Part shown: positions 8,441 through 31,337 of the stretch, piece after piece | How the letters are laid out: each line of letters begins with the position of its first letter | Numbering within the stretch: the first letter of the stretch is position 1 | IMG/VR virus record: IMGVR_UViG_3300037502_001319 | Span: 1 to 32,554 of that record | Source of the DNA: a virus | DNA length: 32,554 nt | Direction: 5' to 3' (one strand) | Notes under the pieces: model-generated | What the model saw: only the letters and a program-made list of their open reading frames with translations | What the model was told of the DNA's origin: nothing | Database searches by the model: none | Translations under genes and position numbers: made by a program

Positions 8441-9463
8441 TTACGCAAGTCCCGCCTTGCGACAAGCCACACACGCGCCTCTGGTGAAACGCGGGCTGAT
8501 ATGTCCGTGGGTACACGGTTGACCGGTGAAGTAATGTTTTTCTCCCTTGTCCTTTGCCTCCTGACGCGTGCGGGGCAGGTGCTTGAACTCTTCCGGGATC
8601 TCAACGGGCGCTGGCGGCTCTATGGGCGCGTCTGCGTAGCAGAACAGCCATCCGGTCAGTTTCCCCTTGGCAAGCGGCTTCTGGGTCTTCATGACCCGTA
8701 CAAGCATCTGATACGGCACGCCGAGCTCCTCACCAGCAAGCGCAGTCCCGGGAAAGTCTCGACGGGTACCGTCAGGCAGGATGGCGTAGACCGGGCGGCG
8801 CATCTTTTCCTTGGACTCTTCGGTGTGGCTCTTGCCGAGGAAGTTCTTGTTCCCCCTGACCCGCTGGCGGATGGCTTCTTTTTCTGCTTCAGAAAGTGTC
8901 CGCCCCGGCCGTCCAATTTGCGCTTGGCTAATCTTCCTACGCGTCTCTTCGCTACGTGTTTTGCCCAGCCAAAAAGGCTGTGGGTTAGCTAATTTGGATT
9001 GGCGAATACGCTCTTTTGTCTCATCCGAATGCGTTTTACCAAGTCTGGGATGATTGTTAGGGTCTTCGGCGTAGAAGGCTTTGAGCGTTGCAGATATAGC
9101 TTCTTTTTGCTCTTCTTTAATTGGAACCTGGTACTTTGGGTTGCTTGCACCAAACCGACCACGCATGGGTGCGTCAGGAGAACTGCCTGCGTTATAGCAG
9201 TACGGTTTACCAAAATGCTCAGTAAGCCAGCGCGCTTCTGCGTCCCAAAGTTTAGTCGCGTCCTCGATGACTTCTTGAATTTCAAATCTGAAGCAGGCTT
9301 CACCGTACTTATTCCACGAAGCCTGAAGGTGCTTACAGTGATGGCGGTTATTTTGTAGAAGTTTTACGTGATTGCGAAAGCGTTCGCGGGCATCAATCGT
9401 ACTTCCAACGTAGAACTTGTCGTTGACCGTGTTGCGGATTTTGTAAATGACCGGCTGCTTCAA
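8441..9463 (-). CDS. GIY-YIG homing endonuclease with NUMOD3 repeats and C-terminal zinc finger
   Basis: The N-terminal GIY-YIG nuclease domain is complete: VIYKI (Tyr7), FYVGST (Tyr18, Gly20), Arg28, His32, catalytic Glu76 and Asn91. It is followed by NUMOD3-type DNA-binding repeats (GKTHSDETKERIRQSK, GKTRSEETRRKISQAQ, GKSHTEESKEKM). The C-terminus has CTHGHISPRFTRGACVAC, a probable zinc finger. It should nick or cut DNA at a specific site, probably in related phages lacking the gene. The start is TTG at 9463 with GGAG six bases upstream. It lies between the capsid gene's terminator and the next structural gene, has its own promoter, and is less GC-rich than its neighbours. All this fits a mobile, free-standing homing gene. 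Confidence 0.92.
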   Translation of the reverse strand: MKQPVIYKIRNTVNDKFYVGSTIDARERFRNHVKLLQNNRHHCKHLQASWNKYGEACFRFEIQEVIEDATKLWDAEARWLTEHFGKPYCYNAGSSPDAPMRGRFGASNPKYQVPIKEEQKEAISATLKAFYAEDPNNHPRLGKTHSDETKERIRQSKLANPQPFWLGKTRSEETRRKISQAQIGRPGRTLSEAEKEAIRQRVRGNKNFLGKSHTEESKEKMRRPVYAILPDGTRRDFPGTALAGEELGVPYQMLVRVMKTQKPLAKGKLTGWLFCYADAPIEPPAPVEIPEEFKHLPRTRQEAKDKGEKHYFTGQPCTHGHISPRFTRGACVACRKAGLA

Positions 9464-21628: not shown

Positions 21629-21913
21629 ATGAACATCATCACCAACAACCGCCCACGCCCGCTGGCGTGCCTCGTGGACCTGCCTGCCAAGGTGCAGGAG
21701 GACTTCGACTACCTCAACGACCCGCACGAGTACCGGCTGGTGCAGTACAAAAGCCACTGGTACGACGTTTACGACAGCCAGTCCATCACCCGCGAGTTGG
21801 GCTTCGACCAGTTCAAGGGCTGGCACGGCATCCAGTCAGACTCGTTTTTCTCCGGCATCCTGTTCCGCCTCGTCGGTGACGACGAGGTGATTGTGGGCCG
21901 CTACGCGGCCTGA
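21629..21913 (+). CDS. Conserved small phage protein (94 aa)
   Basis: The centre reads VDLPAKVQEDFDYLNDPHEY followed by RLVQYKSHWYDVYDSQ, and the end is DSFFSGILFRLVGDDEVIVGRY. This is a pattern I recognise from many phage early regions without known function. ATG at 21629 has GGAGAG upstream. A frame beginning at 21605 is longer but lacks a site. It is the first gene after the strong promoter and long leader, so probably expressed early. Confidence 0.65.
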   Translation: MNIITNNRPRPLACLVDLPAKVQEDFDYLNDPHEYRLVQYKSHWYDVYDSQSITRELGFDQFKGWHGIQSDSFFSGILFRLVGDDEVIVGRYAA

Positions 21914-23142: not shown

Positions 23143-23158
23143 GCCCCGGCGACGGGGC
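23143..23158 (+). other. Intergenic hairpin with GCGA tetraloop
   Basis: The stem GCCCCG/CGGGGC closes GCGA (a GNRA loop). There is no T tract. It is immediately followed by CTAGGAG and the start codon of the DUF3150-like gene, the same design as other intergenic hairpins in this block. Confidence 0.55.
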
Positions 23159-23170
23159 CTAGGAGTTCCC

Positions 23171-24109
23171 ATGAGCATCACATCCATCACCGCCGCTGCC
23201 ATGCTGGGCAGCATCAATATCTCCGTGTGGGAAGCACGAAAGCAAGACCGCAAGACTGCCGAGGAGGTGGCCGTCTCCAAGGGTGCACGGTCTAAGCGCG
23301 CCGCCACGGTGCATAAGCATTTGTTTTCGGAATGTCCGGCCCTTGAAGCCATAAAGTCCCTGCGCGGCGAGGTGCGGCAGTGGTTCAACACCGTGACCCC
23401 ACCCTGGGATGACAACGGTTGGCGCATCGTGACCGTAGCCCAGTACCTCGACATCACGGCGCAGGCTTCCAAGTACGAGCAGCGGTTCAACGCACTGGTG
23501 CGGACGTTCCTCGCGACATACTCAACGGAAATCTCGAAGCAGGCCTTCGAGATGGGCGCGCTGTTCGACCGCAGCGAGTACCCGCACGAGGACGAGGTGG
23601 CTGCCAAGTTCCGCTTCTCGTACGCAATCCAGCCCCTGCCTGCGTCGGGTGACTTCCGCGTGGATATCGGCAACGAGGCGAAGAACCAACTGATCGAGCA
23701 GTATGAGCGGCAGATCACGGAACGGGTGTCACGCGCTGTGGCTGACGCGTGGGAGCGGGTCAAAACGCAGGTGGAGTGGGTGCGTGAGCGCATGGATGCT
23801 GTGCTGGCGTACGACCCCGATGCCGTGGAGGAGGTCAAGACCACGGACGACGACGGTGCCGTCGTGTCGGTCGAGATCAAGAAAAAGCGCCGCCCCAAGC
23901 TGTACGACAGCATGCTGGAGCAGGGCCTTGCCCTGACTGACCTGCTCAAGGACCTGAACGTGACCAACGACCCGCGCCTGGAGGAAGCGCGGCGTGATTT
24001 GGAGGCGGCACTGAGCCGCGTCGACATTGACTCCCTGAGGGAGTCCCCCGAACTGCAACGCAGCACGCAGGCTGCTATGCAGGATATTCTCGACAAGTTT
24101 GCGCTGTAA
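23171..24109 (+). CDS. DUF3150-like protein, first gene of the MoxR/VWA module (312 aa)
   Basis: The start SITAAAMLGSINISVWEARK followed by QDRKTAEEVAVSKGA, then HKHLFSECPALEAIKSLRGEVRQWFN, matches my memory of DUF3150 proteins of proteobacterial phages and plasmids, often near MoxR/VWA genes. The rest is strongly helical and charged (QLIEQYERQITERVSRAVAD, then AWERVKTQVEWVRERM), suggesting a scaffold or partner protein. CTAGGAG lies upstream. The downstream AAA+ and DUF2201 genes suggest it is a substrate adaptor or structural component of that module. Biochemical function unknown. Confidence 0.6.
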   Translation: MSITSITAAAMLGSINISVWEARKQDRKTAEEVAVSKGARSKRAATVHKHLFSECPALEAIKSLRGEVRQWFNTVTPPWDDNGWRIVTVAQYLDITAQASKYEQRFNALVRTFLATYSTEISKQAFEMGALFDRSEYPHEDEVAAKFRFSYAIQPLPASGDFRVDIGNEAKNQLIEQYERQITERVSRAVADAWERVKTQVEWVRERMDAVLAYDPDAVEEVKTTDDDGAVVSVEIKKKRRPKLYDSMLEQGLALTDLLKDLNVTNDPRLEEARRDLEAALSRVDIDSLRESPELQRSTQAAMQDILDKFAL

Positions 24110-24116
24110 TCAACCC

Positions 24117-24130
24117 GGGGCTTCGGCCCC
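24117..24130 (+). other. Intergenic hairpin with UUCG loop
   Basis: GGGGC-TTCG-GCCCC directly after the DUF3150-like stop, followed by ACTAGGAG and the next start codon. There is no T tract, so it is more likely an mRNA stability or processing element than a terminator. Confidence 0.6.
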
Positions 24131-24147
24131 ATCACTAGGAGAGAGAA

Positions 24148-24732
24148 ATGTTTGACATCAACACCGCTATCAACACCGCTATCGCCACGGCAGTTGCCGA
24201 GGCTACCCGTCCGCTTCTGGAACGCATCGCCGTGCTGGAGGAGACGGTGGACATCAACAATGCCAGTATCGCCACGCTGAATAACCGGCTGAACGAGGCT
24301 GCACCTGCCGTTCAAGTCGACGAGGCCAAGATGGTCGAGGCACTGAACTCTCAGGAATGGTTCTGGGAAAAGCTGTCCCGGTTCGTCACCGACAACAGCA
24401 GCATCACCGTCGAGGACTTGCACATGGTGCAGCGCCGCGTCACCGCACTGGAGGGCAGCATCACCGTCGAGGACTTGCACATGGTGCAGCGCCGCGTCAC
24501 CGCACTGGAGGACGCACGCTACCAGGGTGCGCTGAGCCGCAGCGATGTGGAGGCGTTGATCGAAGCGGCAATCAACGACCACTGCGAGACCTACGACCAC
24601 GACCAGTACGACGAGGTCTATAACGAGTGGGGCGGCGAGAGCCCGGACGAGTTCGTCAGGGACGATGACCTGCGTGGCACGGTCGAGGAAGTCATGAACA
24701 GCGCTTCGTTTGAAGTGACTGTGCGCCTGTAA
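24148..24732 (+). CDS. Coiled-coil protein with exact 57-bp tandem repeat (194 aa)
   Basis: Residues about 10-55 form a coiled coil (EATRPLLERIAVLEETVDIN, then SIATLNNRLNEA). Residues 85-122 are two copies of SITVEDLHMVQRRVTALE(G/D), identical at the DNA level apart from the edges. The C-terminus is acidic (NEWGGESPDEFVRDDDLRGT). It looks like a structural or adaptor protein rather than an enzyme. It is placed between the DUF3150-like and AAA+ genes with a TAGGAG site, so probably part of the same module. No family recognised. Confidence 0.58.
   Translation: MFDINTAINTAIATAVAEATRPLLERIAVLEETVDINNASIATLNNRLNEAAPAVQVDEAKMVEALNSQEWFWEKLSRFVTDNSSITVEDLHMVQRRVTALEGSITVEDLHMVQRRVTALEDARYQGALSRSDVEALIEAAINDHCETYDHDQYDEVYNEWGGESPDEFVRDDDLRGTVEEVMNSASFEVTVRL
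24399..24513 (+). repeat. 57-bp tandem repeat within the coiled-coil gene
   Basis: Two adjacent copies of a 57-bp unit (24400-24456 and 24457-24513) differ only near the copy edges. In protein this is a 19-residue duplication, SITVEDLHMVQRRVTALE plus G or D. The near-perfect identity points to a very recent duplication or an assembly duplication. Confidence 0.9.
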
Positions 24733-24737
24733 ACAAC

Positions 24738-24751
24738 GCCCCTTCGGGGGC
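24738..24751 (+). other. Intergenic hairpin with UUCG loop
   Basis: GCCCC-TTCG-GGGGC after the coiled-coil gene, followed by TTAGGAG and the 87-aa gene start. This repeats the hairpin-then-TAGGAG design and lacks a T tract. Confidence 0.6.
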
Positions 24752-24764
24752 TTAGGAGAACCAA

Positions 24765-25028
24765 ATGAAAGATCTTGGAATTCAGCTTGCCATCGTGGAC
24801 AATGGCTTCGTTTACGTCGGCAATATCATCTTCGACGGTGACTATTACGCCGTGACTAACGGGTACAATGTCCGCAAGAGTGGCACCACGAAGGGCTTCG
24901 GACAACTGGCCTTTGAAGGTCCGCTCGGTGAGACCGCACTCGACCCGGTGCCTACGGTGCTCGTGCCTAAGGCACGGCTGTGCCACTTCATCGAGTGCAA
25001 TGATGTGTGGAAGAAGCACATTAAGTAA
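24765..25028 (+). CDS. Conserved small phage protein (87 aa)
   Basis: The product opens IQLAIVDNGFVYVGNIIFDG, continues YYAVTNGYNVRKSGTTKGFG and QLAFEGPLGETALDPVPTVL, and is rich in beta structure. Similar short proteins with VDxGFVYVG...NxRxxGTTxGxGxLA are common in phages of Proteobacteria but have no function that I know of. It directly precedes the AAA+ gene. The ribosome-binding site TTAGGAG is good. Confidence 0.6.
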   Translation: MKDLGIQLAIVDNGFVYVGNIIFDGDYYAVTNGYNVRKSGTTKGFGQLAFEGPLGETALDPVPTVLVPKARLCHFIECNDVWKKHIK

Positions 25029-25060
25029 CCCACCGCGATACCAACCACTAGGAGTGAACA

Positions 25061-26116
25061 ATGAACCTCAAGCTCAACATCAATCAGATCTTCAAGCTCA
25101 TCAGCATCAACGGTGCCGATAAGACGTACATCATCGAGGGTCCGATGGGCTCCGGTAAGTCGAGCATCGTGAAGATGTTCAACACCACGAAGTACAACGT
25201 GGTGACTGTGGACTGCACGCAGTGGGATGTGGGCGATGTCCAGATCCCGAGCATCGACAAGGAGCGCCGGGTCATCGAGTTCCTGCCCAACGTGTTGCTC
25301 GTGGGTGACTACAGCAAGCCGATGGTGGTGCTGCTCGACGAGATCGGCAAAGCCTCCCGCCCTGTGCAGAATGCGCTGCTGCCGGTGATGCTGGAGCGTC
25401 GTGTCGGTGCGGTGCCGCTGCCCGAGGGCAGCATCGTGTTCGGTGCGACCAACCTCGGTGCCGAGGGTGTGGGTGATCTCTTCCAAGCCCATGCCTGTAA
25501 CCGTGTCTCATTCATCGAGATGCGCAACCCGACCGCAGACGAGTGGGTGGAGTGGGGTCTCGCCAACGGCGTGAACGAAGCCATGCTGGCCTGGGCCAAG
25601 GAGGAGCAGGGCCGACTCTTCGGCACGTTCAAAGACCACCAGAACCCTGCCGACTTCCCGTACGGTTTCCACCCCAAGGAGAAGCGCCGCTCGTTCTGCA
25701 CGCCCCGCTCGCTGTATCTCGCCAGCATCGAACTGCGTGAGGATCGCCGTGCGGCTGTGGGTGATGCCGACATCACCCTGGCTGCCATCGCTGGCAACAT
25801 CGGCCCCCGGGCTGCGTTCGACCTGATGGCCTTCGTGGAACTGGCCGACAAGCTGCCTGCCTGGGCGACGATCATCAACGCCCCGGACAAGGCCAAGGTG
25901 CCCGACAACGCTGCGGCCATGATGATGACGGTCTATCGTGCAGTGATGCGTACCGATAGGGATACGCTCGACGCTGTGATGGTCTACATCAAACGCCTGC
26001 CGGTCGAGATGCAGTGTGTCTTCGCCACGCAGTTGCTCCGTGCCCGCAAGCAGTGGGCTGCGCTGAACGCAGAGTTCACGGATTGGATCCGCGCCAATCA
26101 CTGGGTGATGAAGTGA
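25061..26116 (+). CDS. MoxR-type AAA+ ATPase (351 aa)
   Basis: A clear AAA+ core: Walker A GPMGSGKS (residues 27-34), Walker B VVLLDE (89-94), sensor 1 GATN (128-131), and Arg148 in the arginine-finger region. The segment NALLPVMLERRVGAVPLPEG corresponds to the ALLEAMEER block of MoxR family members. The C-terminal half is helical, as in this family. MoxR ATPases work with VWA proteins to remodel or activate target complexes (RavA-ViaA, CbbQ-CbbO, NorQ-NorD). Here the partner is probably the DUF2201-type protein at 26476. TAGGAG precedes the start. Confidence 0.85.
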   Translation: MNLKLNINQIFKLISINGADKTYIIEGPMGSGKSSIVKMFNTTKYNVVTVDCTQWDVGDVQIPSIDKERRVIEFLPNVLLVGDYSKPMVVLLDEIGKASRPVQNALLPVMLERRVGAVPLPEGSIVFGATNLGAEGVGDLFQAHACNRVSFIEMRNPTADEWVEWGLANGVNEAMLAWAKEEQGRLFGTFKDHQNPADFPYGFHPKEKRRSFCTPRSLYLASIELREDRRAAVGDADITLAAIAGNIGPRAAFDLMAFVELADKLPAWATIINAPDKAKVPDNAAAMMMTVYRAVMRTDRDTLDAVMVYIKRLPVEMQCVFATQLLRARKQWAALNAEFTDWIRANHWVMK

Positions 26117-26205
26117 TCCTCATTTGGTACCTAGCTGACGCTGCGATGCATGGCAACGGCAACGGCGACGGCGACGGCTACGGCAGAAAAGCTAAACTTT
26201 TCTAG
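26113..26205 (+). CDS. IWYLxDA-type Gly/Asp/Tyr-rich peptide, copy 2 (30 aa)
   Basis: The start is GTG overlapping the ATPase stop (GTGA). It encodes MILIWYLADAAMHGNGNGDG and then DGYGRKAKLF. The nucleotide sequence of its first 45 bases is strikingly like that of the next gene, indicating a tandem duplication. It is too short for a globular domain. It is translationally coupled to the AAA+ gene, which argues that it is a real peptide of the module. Role unknown. Confidence 0.55.
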   Translation: MILIWYLADAAMHGNGNGDGDGYGRKAKLF

Positions 26206-26214
26206 GAGGTACGA

Positions 26215-26466
26215 ATGATCTTCATCTGGTACCTAGCGGATGCCGTCATGCATGGCACCGGCACTTGCGTAGACCCCGCTCTTGCGCAGGTGTTGTCCGA
26301 AGGTAAGGACTTCTTCGGCGACGGGCGCGACTACGGTCACGGTAACGGCGATGTCAGTGGCGCGGGTGAAACGTTTGCCAGTGGGTACTCCCTGGCCAGA
26401 AGTGGAGAGTGCTACGGCTACGGACCTTCTTACGACAACGGCAAGTCTTTCCCATTCACATTTTAG
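26215..26466 (+). CDS. IWYLxDA-type Gly/Asp/Tyr-rich small protein, copy 3 (83 aa)
   Basis: It starts MIFIWYLADAVMHGTGTC and continues in a Gly/Asp/Tyr/Ser-rich low-complexity body (FFGDGRDYGHGNGDVSGAGE). An AGGAGG site precedes the ATG by 5 bases. It sits between the MoxR-type ATPase and the DUF2201/VWA gene. The N-terminus is shared with 20813 and 26113. A short hydrophobic segment (IFIWYLADAVM) is present but is not long enough to be a convincing membrane helix. Function unknown. Confidence 0.6.
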   Translation: MIFIWYLADAVMHGTGTCVDPALAQVLSEGKDFFGDGRDYGHGNGDVSGAGETFASGYSLARSGECYGYGPSYDNGKSFPFTF

Positions 26467-26475
26467 GAGAATCAC

Positions 26476-27666
26476 ATGTCCCCTGAAGATCGACTCTTGC
26501 GGACCCGGGTTGCAGTTATGCGCGACCCTCGGTTCCTGGCCCTGGCGGGCCTCATGATGATGGGCGAGTGCAAGCTCGTGGATGACCTACCCACTGCTGC
26601 GACAAACGGCAGGGATGTGCTCATCGGCAGGCAGTTCATCGATACGCTGGATGATCAGACACTACGTTTTGTGATACTCCATGAGTATTACCACGTGCTG
26701 TTCATGCACATGGTGACTTGGAAGCACCTGTTCGACGAGGACCCGCAGCTTGCGAACATGGCCTGCGATGCGGTGATCAACATCATGCTGGACAAGCAGG
26801 CCGGTGCGAAAGCTGATGAGTTCCTCACGGTGTGGCCCCATGCCATCCTCGACTACCAGTACGATGGGCTGGATGCAGGTGAGGTGTACCGGCGACTCAA
26901 GGCCCAGGCCAAGCAACAGCAGCGTAGTGCAAGCGGCGGCAAGGCCCAGCAGATGGACGAGCACCGGCCCGCATCAGGCGGTGCCAAGGATGGCGAGGTA
27001 GGCGAAGCCCTGAGCGAGGCGCAGGCTGCCCAGGTGGCGAAGGCGGTGGACACCGCTGTGCGTCAGGCAGCGATCATCGCTGGCAAGACCGGTGCGTCTC
27101 TCGACCGCAGCGTGAAAGATCTGCTGGCGGTGACCGTCGACTGGCGCGAGATGCTCAGAGACTTCCTGCGTTCGACCTGCACGGGCACTGACCTGTCCAC
27201 GTGGCGCCGCCCGTCGCGTCGCGGCATGGCGATGGATGCCACCCTGCCATCGAGGTACTCTGAGTCTGCCAAGCGTGTGACCATCGGCGTGGATACCTCG
27301 GGCTCCATCGGTGCCGAGCAGCTTCGTCGTGCACTGACCGAGATCATGGCTGCGTGTGAGACCGTCAAGCCTGAGATGGTCGACGTCATCTACTGGGATG
27401 CGCAGGTGGCAGGGCACGAGGTCTACGAGGGCGACGCAGTCACCACGCTGGCCGAGGTGACCAAGCCCAAGGGCGGGGGCGGCACCGACCCGGTCAGCAT
27501 GCAGCGGTATATGGACGCGCATGGCATCAAGCCCGACTGCATCATTCAGTTCACCGATGGCTACATCGGCAGGGATTGGGGCACGTGGCCTGCGCCCGTG
27601 CTGTGGTGCGTGAGTACCAAGAACATCACCGCGCCGAGCGGTACCACGCTCTATGTCCCCGCCTAA
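26476..27666 (+). CDS. DUF2201-type metallopeptidase-like and VWA domain protein (396 aa)
   Basis: The N-terminal domain has a zinc-peptidase-like HEYYH (69-73) plus His78, as in the DUF2201/COG3864 'predicted metal-dependent peptidase' family. A charged Lys/Gln/Ala linker spans about 140-190. The C-terminal domain is a VWA-like fold with MIDAS residues: DTSGS (273-277), GGGGTD (Thr337/Asp338) and TDG (360-362). Such proteins pair with MoxR-type ATPases like the one at 25061. It may act as a substrate-binding arm of the ATPase or as a protease. Whether the peptidase is active is not known for the family. Confidence 0.82.
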   Translation: MSPEDRLLRTRVAVMRDPRFLALAGLMMMGECKLVDDLPTAATNGRDVLIGRQFIDTLDDQTLRFVILHEYYHVLFMHMVTWKHLFDEDPQLANMACDAVINIMLDKQAGAKADEFLTVWPHAILDYQYDGLDAGEVYRRLKAQAKQQQRSASGGKAQQMDEHRPASGGAKDGEVGEALSEAQAAQVAKAVDTAVRQAAIIAGKTGASLDRSVKDLLAVTVDWREMLRDFLRSTCTGTDLSTWRRPSRRGMAMDATLPSRYSESAKRVTIGVDTSGSIGAEQLRRALTEIMAACETVKPEMVDVIYWDAQVAGHEVYEGDAVTTLAEVTKPKGGGGTDPVSMQRYMDAHGIKPDCIIQFTDGYIGRDWGTWPAPVLWCVSTKNITAPSGTTLYVPA

Positions 27667-27700
27667 AAACGGGAACGGGTGTCAACTCAATATCAACTCC

Positions 27701-27714
27701 GGCGCTGCCGCGCC
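27701..27714 (+). other. Intergenic hairpin
   Basis: GGCGC-TGCC-GCGCC lies between the DUF2201/VWA gene and the 98-aa gene and is followed by GGGAG. The design matches the other intergenic hairpins in this block, though the loop is not UUCG. Confidence 0.5.
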
Positions 27715-27729
27715 GATTCGGGAGTTCCT

Positions 27730-30616: not shown

Positions 30617-30891
30617 CCACACTACGTGAAGCAGCGCAGCATGTGGCTGCCGAACTGCGTGCCGACATCAACTACACAAGTATGGGCACGCCGCAATCGA
30701 TGCGGGATGAATGGATGGCAGAGATGGCCGAGATGCTGGAGAAGGCAGCGGAGCCTCTTACTTTGGACAAGTTGTCCAACGCCCTCGTGATGTCCCGTCT
30801 TATCGACAAGGACGCCATTGAGAACCCCGAGGAGTACGACGACGGCGTGACGCTGGAGCAGGTACGGGCTGTTTATAGGGGGCTGGTATGA
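30613..30891 (+). CDS. Small phage protein with MTTLREAAQHV N-terminus (92 aa)
   Basis: This is the second of three neighbouring genes with related N-termini. It is helical and acidic (DEWMAEMAEMLEKAAEPLTL, then DDGVTLEQVRAVYRGL). It starts and ends with ATGA overlaps. No domain is recognised beyond the shared leader. Confidence 0.5.
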   Translation: MTTLREAAQHVAAELRADINYTSMGTPQSMRDEWMAEMAEMLEKAAEPLTLDKLSNALVMSRLIDKDAIENPEEYDDGVTLEQVRAVYRGLV

Positions 30892-31337
30892 GTGACCTGA
30901 GGAAAGCCGCCCAGCAGGCGCTGGAGGCGTTGGAGGGAGACTGCATTCCTTGGTCTGGAGGCCTACTGCAAGGATACGGAATCATTTGGAACTTTGGTGC
31001 CCCAAAGAAAAGAAAGAAGGCCCACGTTGCCGCATGGGAATCTATCAATGGACCAGTTCCAGATGGATATGTTTTGGACCATCTATGCCGCCGAAGCTGC
31101 GTGAACACAAAACATCTTGAACTTGTGACTGCCGCAGAAAACACATTGCGCGGCTTTGGGCCCACGGCGATCAACGCCAGGAAGACGCACTGCGTCCACG
31201 GCCATGAACTCTCTGGCAAGAATTTACTGATTGATTACCGAGGCCGAAGGAAGTGCAAAACATGCCAAGCGGCCCACGAAAAGGCATACAAAGACAGGCA
31301 AAAGATGGAGCAAAGCAATGAACAATGCGGAACTTGA
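30888..31337 (+). CDS. HNH homing endonuclease fused to a MSDLRKAAQQALEALE leader (149 aa)
   Basis: After the leader (1-17) comes a typical phage HNH endonuclease: DCIPWSGGLLQGYGI, AHVAAWESINGPVPDGYVLD, then HLCRRSCVNTKHLELVTAAE. The motif residues are Asp64-His65, Asn73 and His76, with Cys67 and Cys71. The end, THCVHGHELSG...CKTC, is a zinc finger like the one in the GIY-YIG enzyme. It should cut DNA, probably at a homing site in related phages. The leader matches two neighbouring genes, so the nuclease probably invaded such a gene just after its start. The nuclease body is visibly less GC-rich than its flanks. Confidence 0.85.
   Translation: MSDLRKAAQQALEALEGDCIPWSGGLLQGYGIIWNFGAPKKRKKAHVAAWESINGPVPDGYVLDHLCRRSCVNTKHLELVTAAENTLRGFGPTAINARKTHCVHGHELSGKNLLIDYRGRRKCKTCQAAHEKAYKDRQKMEQSNEQCGT

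What the first reader, a model, noticed from the sequence alone, without database searches (positions are those of the whole stretch)
23171..27666. Phage-borne MoxR AAA+ / DUF2201-VWA module with extra small partners
The sequence shows an intact AAA+ ATPase (Walker A and B, sensor 1) and an intact HExxH plus VWA (MIDAS) protein. They form one tightly arranged run with a DUF3150-like protein, a coiled-coil protein, a short conserved protein and two Gly-rich peptides. Cellular MoxR-VWA pairs (RavA-ViaA, CbbQ-CbbO, NorQ-NorD) remodel or activate specific complexes. What a phage would remodel is not established. The extra partners make this a candidate undescribed phage chaperone or protease system, for example one acting on a host complex or on a capsid/tail assembly step.
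Basis: partly seen in the sequence, partly recalled or inferred. Interest (0 to 1): 0.8.

Follow-up and report, generated by a model that had tools for sequence, protein, structure and literature searches.

The report
Three-gene MoxR–VWA–DUF3150 phage machine
This phage carries a three-gene set (a ring-shaped ATPase, a protein joining a predicted zinc-protease domain to an adhesive VWA domain, and a third protein of unknown fold called DUF3150) that recurs together in many other phages and, in a related form, on conjugative plasmids, probably as an ATP-driven machine that takes apart protein complexes; the two small Gly-rich peptides, the coiled-coil gene and the short gene next to it are not part of the core.

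Summary
An intact MoxR-type AAA+ ATPase (25061-26116) and an intact HExxH metallopeptidase–VWA protein of the DUF2201 family (26476-27666) lie in one run with a DUF3150-like protein (23171-24109). The claimed six- or seven-gene module does not hold. The coiled-coil gene, the 87-aa gene and the IWYLADA peptides are sporadic or lineage-specific.

A three-gene core does hold. Of viral loci chosen by DUF3150, with at least 3.5 kb on both sides, 38/38 carry the VWA gene and 37/38 the ATPase. Of loci chosen by VWA, 29/29 carry the ATPase and 24/29 DUF3150. Gene order differs between lineages, and a related triad sits on conjugative plasmids. N4, Bacillus phage G and others keep the ATPase and VWA genes without detectable DUF3150, so DUF3150 is an optional third subunit.

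The MoxR + metallopeptidase–VWA pair in phages is already published (Iyer 2021, PMC7824862). The DUF3150 triad shared by phages and plasmids appears undescribed: no paper in the held library names DUF3150. The neighbourhood is mostly DNA replication and recombination genes, so I favour an ATP-driven remodelling or proteolysis machine acting on nucleoprotein complexes. The substrate remains inferred.

The parts
23171..24109 (+). DUF3150-like protein, 312 aa: third core subunit (helical, long 45-residue helix, no PDB fold match)
   Evidence: Pfam DUF3150 24.8 bits vs cut-off 24.9; profile-profile to plasmid DUF3150 94%, E 8.5e-8; AF2 pLDDT 91.2, pTM 0.80; no PDB fold match at E<=0.001; viral matches at E<=0.001 are DUF3150 or unnamed/uncharacterised phage proteins
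25061..26116 (+). MoxR/midasin-type AAA+ ATPase, 351 aa: core subunit
   Evidence: Pfam AAA_5/AAA; PHROG_1297 E 4.5e-47; best PDB sequence match Midasin E 3.8e-22
25139..25162 (+). Walker A GPMGSGKS of the ATPase (residues 27-34)
   Evidence: sequence; G30, G32 and K33 invariant
26476..27666 (+). DUF2201 protein: N-terminal HExxH metallopeptidase domain plus C-terminal VWA (MIDAS) domain, 396 aa: core subunit
   Evidence: DUF2201_N 1.3e-28, DUF2201 7.7e-14; Foldseek: Rea1-MIDAS 3.2e-4, NorQD complex 4.3e-4, selecase 1.2e-2
26680..26694 (+). HEYYH zinc-site motif (residues 69-73)
   Evidence: H69, E70 and H73 invariant in 18 diverse homologues together with H78, N94, D98, N102
27292..27306 (+). 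MIDAS DTSGS (residues 273-277)
   Evidence: D273, S275 and S277 invariant in 18 diverse homologues
24148..24732 (+). coiled-coil protein, accessory and not core; contains an exact 57-bp tandem duplication at 24398-24511
   Evidence: absent from the ~92%-identical relative L002; 3/80 DUF3150 loci; repeat
24765..25028 (+). 87-aa conserved small protein, accessory to part of this lineage
   Evidence: dN/dS 0.03 versus L002; 6/80 DUF3150 loci
26113..26205 (+). 30-aa IWYLADA Gly-rich peptide, GTG start overlapping the ATPase stop; accessory cassette
   Evidence: sequence; similar to the next peptide; motif found only in window and L002
26215..26466 (+). 83-aa IWYLADA Gly-rich peptide, accessory cassette
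   Evidence: multicopy in L002

Best explanation
The core is a three-component MoxR-VWA system. SHOWN by comparative genomics: DUF3150, the MoxR AAA+ ATPase and the HExxH-VWA protein recur as a unit in many phages, and a related triad recurs on conjugative plasmids; the ATP, zinc and Mg/MIDAS sites are conserved. INFERRED from the MoxR/midasin paradigm: the ATPase forms a hexameric ring, the VWA MIDAS docks on it and grips an acidic residue of a partner, and ATP hydrolysis pulls that partner apart. INFERRED: DUF3150 is the dedicated adaptor or client that selects the target, and the fused zinc-peptidase domain cuts it, so the set works as a two-part AAA+ protease/remodeller. INFERRED from gene neighbourhood (weakest step): the target is a DNA replication or recombination nucleoprotein complex, of the element or of the host, that must be dismantled during phage replication or plasmid establishment.
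For: Two-way linkage: DUF3150-selected loci with >=3.5 kb on both sides, 38/38 VWA and 37/38 AAA; VWA-selected loci with >=4 kb on both sides, 29/29 AAA and 24/29 DUF3150. The DUF3150 loci span 8 clusters at 50% identity. Three gene orders: DUF3150-AAA-VWA, AAA-VWA-DUF3150 and AAA-DUF3150-VWA on plasmids. Conjugative plasmids: the DUF2201-type triad on Burkholderia and Simplicispira plasmids and a MoxR-DUF3150-VWA triad with a CobT/CoxE-like VWA on pCAR1, and annotated MoxR/AAA, DUF3150 and VWA genes together on IncC and other plasmids. DUF3150 occurs in 1,118 plasmid records, 969 of them typed conjugative. Mirror-tree: DUF3150 distances follow those of AAA (r 0.68; 0.67 given the neighbouring PolA) and VWA (0.43; 0.37), against 0.24 for PolA. 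DNA-metabolism context: PolA within about 8 kb in 38/44 phage loci, exonuclease in 20, SNF2 helicase in 11; ssb, recT/bet and/or lambda-exonuclease within 5 kb on all five plasmids sampled. Fold: the MIDAS matches midasin and NorQD, the zincin domain weakly matches selecase; AAA is closest to midasin.
Against: No interaction was tested. Phage early genes cluster anyway, so the DNA neighbourhood is weak evidence, and pCAR1 has its ssb/recT/exo genes about 10-20 kb away. On some plasmids the triad also borders transfer genes (traF/traH; VirB4-like). N4-type phages keep the ATPase and VWA genes without detectable DUF3150, so DUF3150 is dispensable to the class. The PA5oct ATPase is flagged as seen by mass spectrometry, and other genes so flagged in that record are called structural, which hints at a virion role. 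Proteolytic activity is inferred from motifs only.
Confidence: 0.45

Rival explanations
1. Virion-assembly chaperone/protease: the MoxR-VWA-peptidase set remodels and trims capsid or tail proteins, as proposed for jumbo phages and shown in part for Acidianus two-tailed virus p618/p892. On plasmids it would help build the conjugation apparatus.
For: Iyer 2021 proposes exactly this for jumbo phages (PMC7824862). ATV p618 binds VWA protein p892 and other virion proteins (PMC4124505). The PA5oct ATPase carries an ESI-MS/MS flag. A roseophage has a second structural module near the gp24/25 homologues (PMC4193335). On plasmids the triad can border traF/traH or VirB4-like genes.
Against: In the window the module lies on the strand opposite the structural block. 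In relatives it sits beside PolA, exonuclease and SNF2 genes. N4 gp24/25 are described as middle genes, not late (PMC4193335).
Confidence: 0.22
2. Counter-defence or host-takeover machine: DUF3150 recruits a host defence or stress complex, which the ATPase and peptidase dismantle.
For: Shared by phages and conjugative plasmids, which both meet host defences; placement away from the late structural block; sporadic distribution; PADLOC finds no known defence component in it, so it is not a defence system of a catalogued kind.
Against: No known counter-defence family was identified nearby apart from one AcrVA2 annotation beside the Pag-Yong1 copy. Conservation as core genes in N4-like phages (PMC7650795) is unusual for a host-specific counter-defence gene.
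Confidence: 0.2
3. DUF3150 is an unrelated neighbour carried along by shared ancestry, and only the ATPase-VWA pair is functional.
For: N4, phage G, PA5oct, phiFa, RHph_TM27A and 5/29 VWA-selected loci lack detectable DUF3150. Tunturi_3 has DUF3150 but no detectable VWA homologue.
Against: Three gene orders with retained linkage, plasmid recurrence, and mirror-tree correlation with AAA well above that with PolA.
Confidence: 0.08
4. One reading: coiled-coil, 87-aa and Gly-rich peptides are working partners of the core.
For: Tight packing in one run; coiled-coil homologues also near the module in L006, L014, L015 and L037-L039; 87-aa gene in 6/80 loci.
Against: Coiled-coil gene missing in the ~92%-identical relative L002; Gly-rich peptides only in window and L002, where copies lie at three different places.
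Confidence: 0.04

Closest known systems
Jumbo-phage MoxR-vWA-metallopeptidase pair (Iyer et al. 2021, PMC7824862)
   Same: MoxR ATPase gene paired with a VWA protein carrying an N-terminal metallopeptidase domain
   Different: No DUF3150 partner mentioned in the passage read; a virion-assembly role was proposed there without experiment
N4 gp24/gp25 (Schitoviridae core genes)
   Same: Homologous ATPase and HExxH-VWA proteins, close together and in the same order
   Different: No detectable DUF3150; gp25 is labelled 'HNH endonuclease' in RefSeq
pCAR1 ORF100-103 / IncC-type plasmid MoxR-DUF3150-VWA cluster (PMC2642839)
   Same: Same three-part make-up, with DUF3150 next to the VWA gene
   Different: pCAR1 VWA protein is CobT/CoxE-like with no peptidase match; pCAR1 ATPase has a CbbQ_C domain, the window ATPase does not
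RavA-ViaA, CbbQ-CbbO, NorQ-NorD
   Same: MoxR + VWA chaperone principle; VWA model matches the NorQD complex
   Different: From family knowledge, no peptidase domain or DUF3150 partner; the window ATPase has no CbbQ_C match
Midasin (Rea1/MDN1)
   Same: AAA closest to midasin in PDB by sequence; VWA matches Rea1-MIDAS by fold
   Different: Midasin is a single giant chain; here ring and MIDAS are separate genes and a peptidase is added
Acidianus two-tailed virus p618/p892
   Same: Viral MoxR + VWA pair
   Different: Archaeal virus; p618 is a virion component; no peptidase domain (PMC4124505, PMC7824862)

Membership tests
MoxR AAA+ ATPase | Walker A/B, sensor 1, conserved arginines | tested here: met
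MoxR AAA+ ATPase | closest to the MoxR/midasin branch rather than other AAA+ clades | tested here: met
   AAA_5 match; midasin best PDB match, E 3.8e-22, others 4e-8 or weaker; no tree built
CbbQ/NorQ | CbbQ_C C-terminal domain | tested here: not met
   no match at E<=0.1, while pCAR1 AAA matches at 3.2e-8
RavA-ViaA | RavA triple-helical and LARA domains | not tested
   no direct comparison with RavA made; the window ATPase is 351 aa
DUF2201 metallopeptidase-VWA | DUF2201_N with HExxH, fused to DUF2201 VWA with MIDAS | tested here: met
DUF2201 metallopeptidase-VWA | peptidase activity | not testable with these tools
   needs an assay
DUF3150 (PF11348) | Pfam gathering score | tested here: inconclusive
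   24.8 versus 24.9 bits; relative L017 26.3 bits; profile-profile 94%, E 8.5e-8
MoxR-DUF3150-VWA mobile-element triad | three genes linked in independent elements | tested here: met
MoxR-DUF3150-VWA mobile-element triad | the three proteins form a complex | not testable with these tools
   single-chain folding only
Known anti-phage defence systems (PADLOC) | match to a system component | tested here: not met
   best E 0.0035, a weak AAA match

The most novel reading that the evidence does not exclude
DUF3150-MoxR-VWA is an undescribed class of ATP-driven remodelling/protease machine shared by phages and conjugative elements, with DUF3150 (no PDB fold match) as substrate adaptor, which dismantles DNA replication/recombination or defence complexes; on phages the VWA subunit carries its own zinc peptidase, and on many plasmids a CobT/CoxE-like VWA replaces it.
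Probability: 0.3. Interest if true: 0.8.

Novelty: new variant of a known kind. Interest (0 to 1): 0.58.

Why it matters
A conserved three-gene machine of unknown function turns up in many uncultivated phages and, in a related form, its DUF3150 gene on over a thousand sequenced plasmids, most of them conjugative and many from clinical bacteria. It has gone without a name, partly because the peptidase–VWA gene is mislabelled 'HNH endonuclease' in a phage family database and in RefSeq. Showing what it remodels would settle whether viruses and conjugative plasmids share a common ATP-driven step in handling DNA or in assembly, and would give a first function to DUF3150 and DUF2201.

Tried and rejected
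(a) DUF3150 in N4, phage G, PA5oct, phiFa and RHph_TM27A: Pfam search of the whole records found none, although that search also misses DUF3150 homologues found otherwise (L003, L006, Pag-Yong1); hhalign against every ORF of at least 130 aa in the fetched 12-17 kb regions found none. The five VWA-selected loci without DUF3150 were also negative.
(b) PDB fold of DUF3150: no match at E<=0.001, best 0.19, so no mechanism can be read from its fold. BFVD matches at E<=0.001 are one DUF3150 protein and unnamed or uncharacterised phage proteins.
(d) Literature on DUF3150: zero papers in the held library; N4-like + MoxR: zero. The CRISPRi-ART paper's main text does not mention N4 gp24/25.
(e) A CobS/CobT cobalt-chelatase reading was considered from memory only and dropped; the window VWA hits DUF2201, not CobT_C.
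(f) An anti-phage defence reading: no PADLOC match of note.
Full report
The window is a 32,554-base virus record. Structural genes (terminase, portal, major head protein, tail protein) lie on the minus strand in the left part, and small + strand genes fill the right part. DUF3150-bearing relatives of the same lineage lie on contigs of up to 61-67 kb, so the record is probably a fragment.

Observation. The ATPase (25061-26116), the HExxH–VWA protein (26476-27666), the DUF3150-like protein (23171-24109), the coiled-coil gene, the 87-aa gene and two Gly-rich peptides are all there. The family assignments are strong for the ATPase and the DUF2201 protein. For DUF3150 the Pfam score alone is borderline (24.8 against a cut-off of 24.9), but profile–profile comparison with plasmid DUF3150 proteins gives 94% probability and E 8.5e-8. 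The zinc site (H69, E70, H73 with H78, N94, D98, N102) and the MIDAS (D273, S275, S277, T337, D361) are invariant in 18 homologues from phages and plasmids, the distant ones at 24-30% identity to the window. DUF3150, the ATPase, VWA and the 87-aa ORF are under purifying selection against the closest relative (dN/dS 0.03-0.18).

What belongs together. In loci fetched by DUF3150 similarity, all 38 with at least 3.5 kb on both sides carry the VWA gene and 37 the ATPase; coiled-coil 3/80, 87-aa 6/80, Gly-rich peptide 0/80. In loci fetched by the VWA protein, 29/29 carry the ATPase and 24/29 DUF3150; a few of these contigs are the same as in the first set. The counts are of related contigs, but the DUF3150 proteins fall into 8 clusters at 50% identity, and the gene order differs: DUF3150-AAA-VWA, AAA-VWA-DUF3150, and AAA-DUF3150-VWA on plasmids. 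Linkage kept through reordering is hard to explain by descent alone. In 38 loci that also carry PolA, DUF3150 distances follow ATPase distances (r 0.68, 0.67 given PolA) and VWA distances (0.43, 0.37) more closely than PolA distances (0.24); closer physical linkage could contribute to this. Further genes (u76, d115, d102, d106) are syntenic across the window's lineage but absent or rare in the other DUF3150 lineages, so they mark the lineage, not the module.

DUF3150 is optional. N4 gp24/gp25, phage G, PA5oct, phiFa and RHph_TM27A have the ATPase and VWA genes without detectable DUF3150. Tunturi_3 has a DUF3150 homologue but no VWA match was found.

The triad on plasmids. Simplicispira and Burkholderia plasmids carry the DUF2201-type triad. 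pCAR1 carries MoxR (with CbbQ_C), DUF3150 (8.3e-92) and a CobT/CoxE-like VWA protein in a row, and five further plasmids sampled by DUF3150 similarity, including IncC plasmids, carry genes annotated as the same three. DUF3150 was found in 1,118 plasmid records, 969 typed conjugative. A transcriptome paper noted that the pCAR1 cluster is conserved in R478, Rts1, SXT and R391 (PMC2642839).

Structure. DUF3150 folds with high confidence (pLDDT 91.2, pTM 0.80) but has no PDB match at E<=0.001. The VWA protein model (pLDDT 79.6) matches Rea1-MIDAS and the NorQD complex, and more weakly the metallopeptidase selecase. The ATPase is closest to midasin among solved structures. This supports the ring-plus-MIDAS working principle, not a named substrate.

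Function. The pair was proposed to assist virion assembly in jumbo phages (PMC7824862), by analogy with Acidianus two-tailed virus (PMC4124505). In the phages with DUF3150 the neighbours are DNA genes: PolA in 38/44 loci with at least 7 kb downstream, exonuclease in 20, SNF2 helicase in 11. On the five plasmids, ssb, recT/bet or lambda-exonuclease genes lie within 5 kb, in the IncC case between the ATPase and DUF3150 genes. Some plasmid copies also border transfer genes, and the PA5oct ATPase carries a mass-spectrometry flag, so the assembly rival stays open. I put the nucleoprotein-remodelling reading first at about 0.45.

Novelty. The ATPase–VWA–peptidase pair is published. The DUF3150 triad linking phages and conjugative plasmids appears undescribed in the held literature (no paper names DUF3150; subscription journals are largely missing from that library). 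I rate it a new variant of a known kind.

Noticed in passing
phrog_1314; N4 gp25 (NC_008720), phage G gp576 and other RefSeq phages: The DUF2201 metallopeptidase-VWA family is named 'HNH endonuclease' in PHROGs and in RefSeq phage records, although the window member matches only DUF2201 and peptidase families in Pfam.
   Followed up: partly
window 21896-21910, 23143-23158, 24117-24130, 24738-24751, 27700-27715: GC-rich stem-loops (two with a TTCG loop) lie directly before the ribosome-binding site of several genes; L002 has a stem of different sequence at the DUF3150 junction. Chance was not tested.
   Followed up: partly
window 26113-26466; L002 9786-10003 and 10954-11301: WYLADA Gly/Tyr-rich peptides occur in several copies at shifting places in the window and L002, like small mobile cassettes.
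   Followed up: partly
window 24398-24511: Exact 57-bp tandem duplication inside the coiled-coil gene, so a recent event.
   Followed up: no
plasmid loci L114-L118: The MoxR-DUF3150-VWA triad sits beside or interleaved with ssb, recT/bet or lambda-exonuclease genes.
   Followed up: partly
window 8441-9463 (-) and 30888-31337 (+): GIY-YIG-type homing endonuclease between structural genes, and an HNH endonuclease near the right end.
   Followed up: no
L022 8872-9831 (Tunturi_3 gp96): A DUF3150 homologue annotated 'HNH endonuclease' in a phage without a detectable DUF2201-VWA gene.
   Followed up: partly
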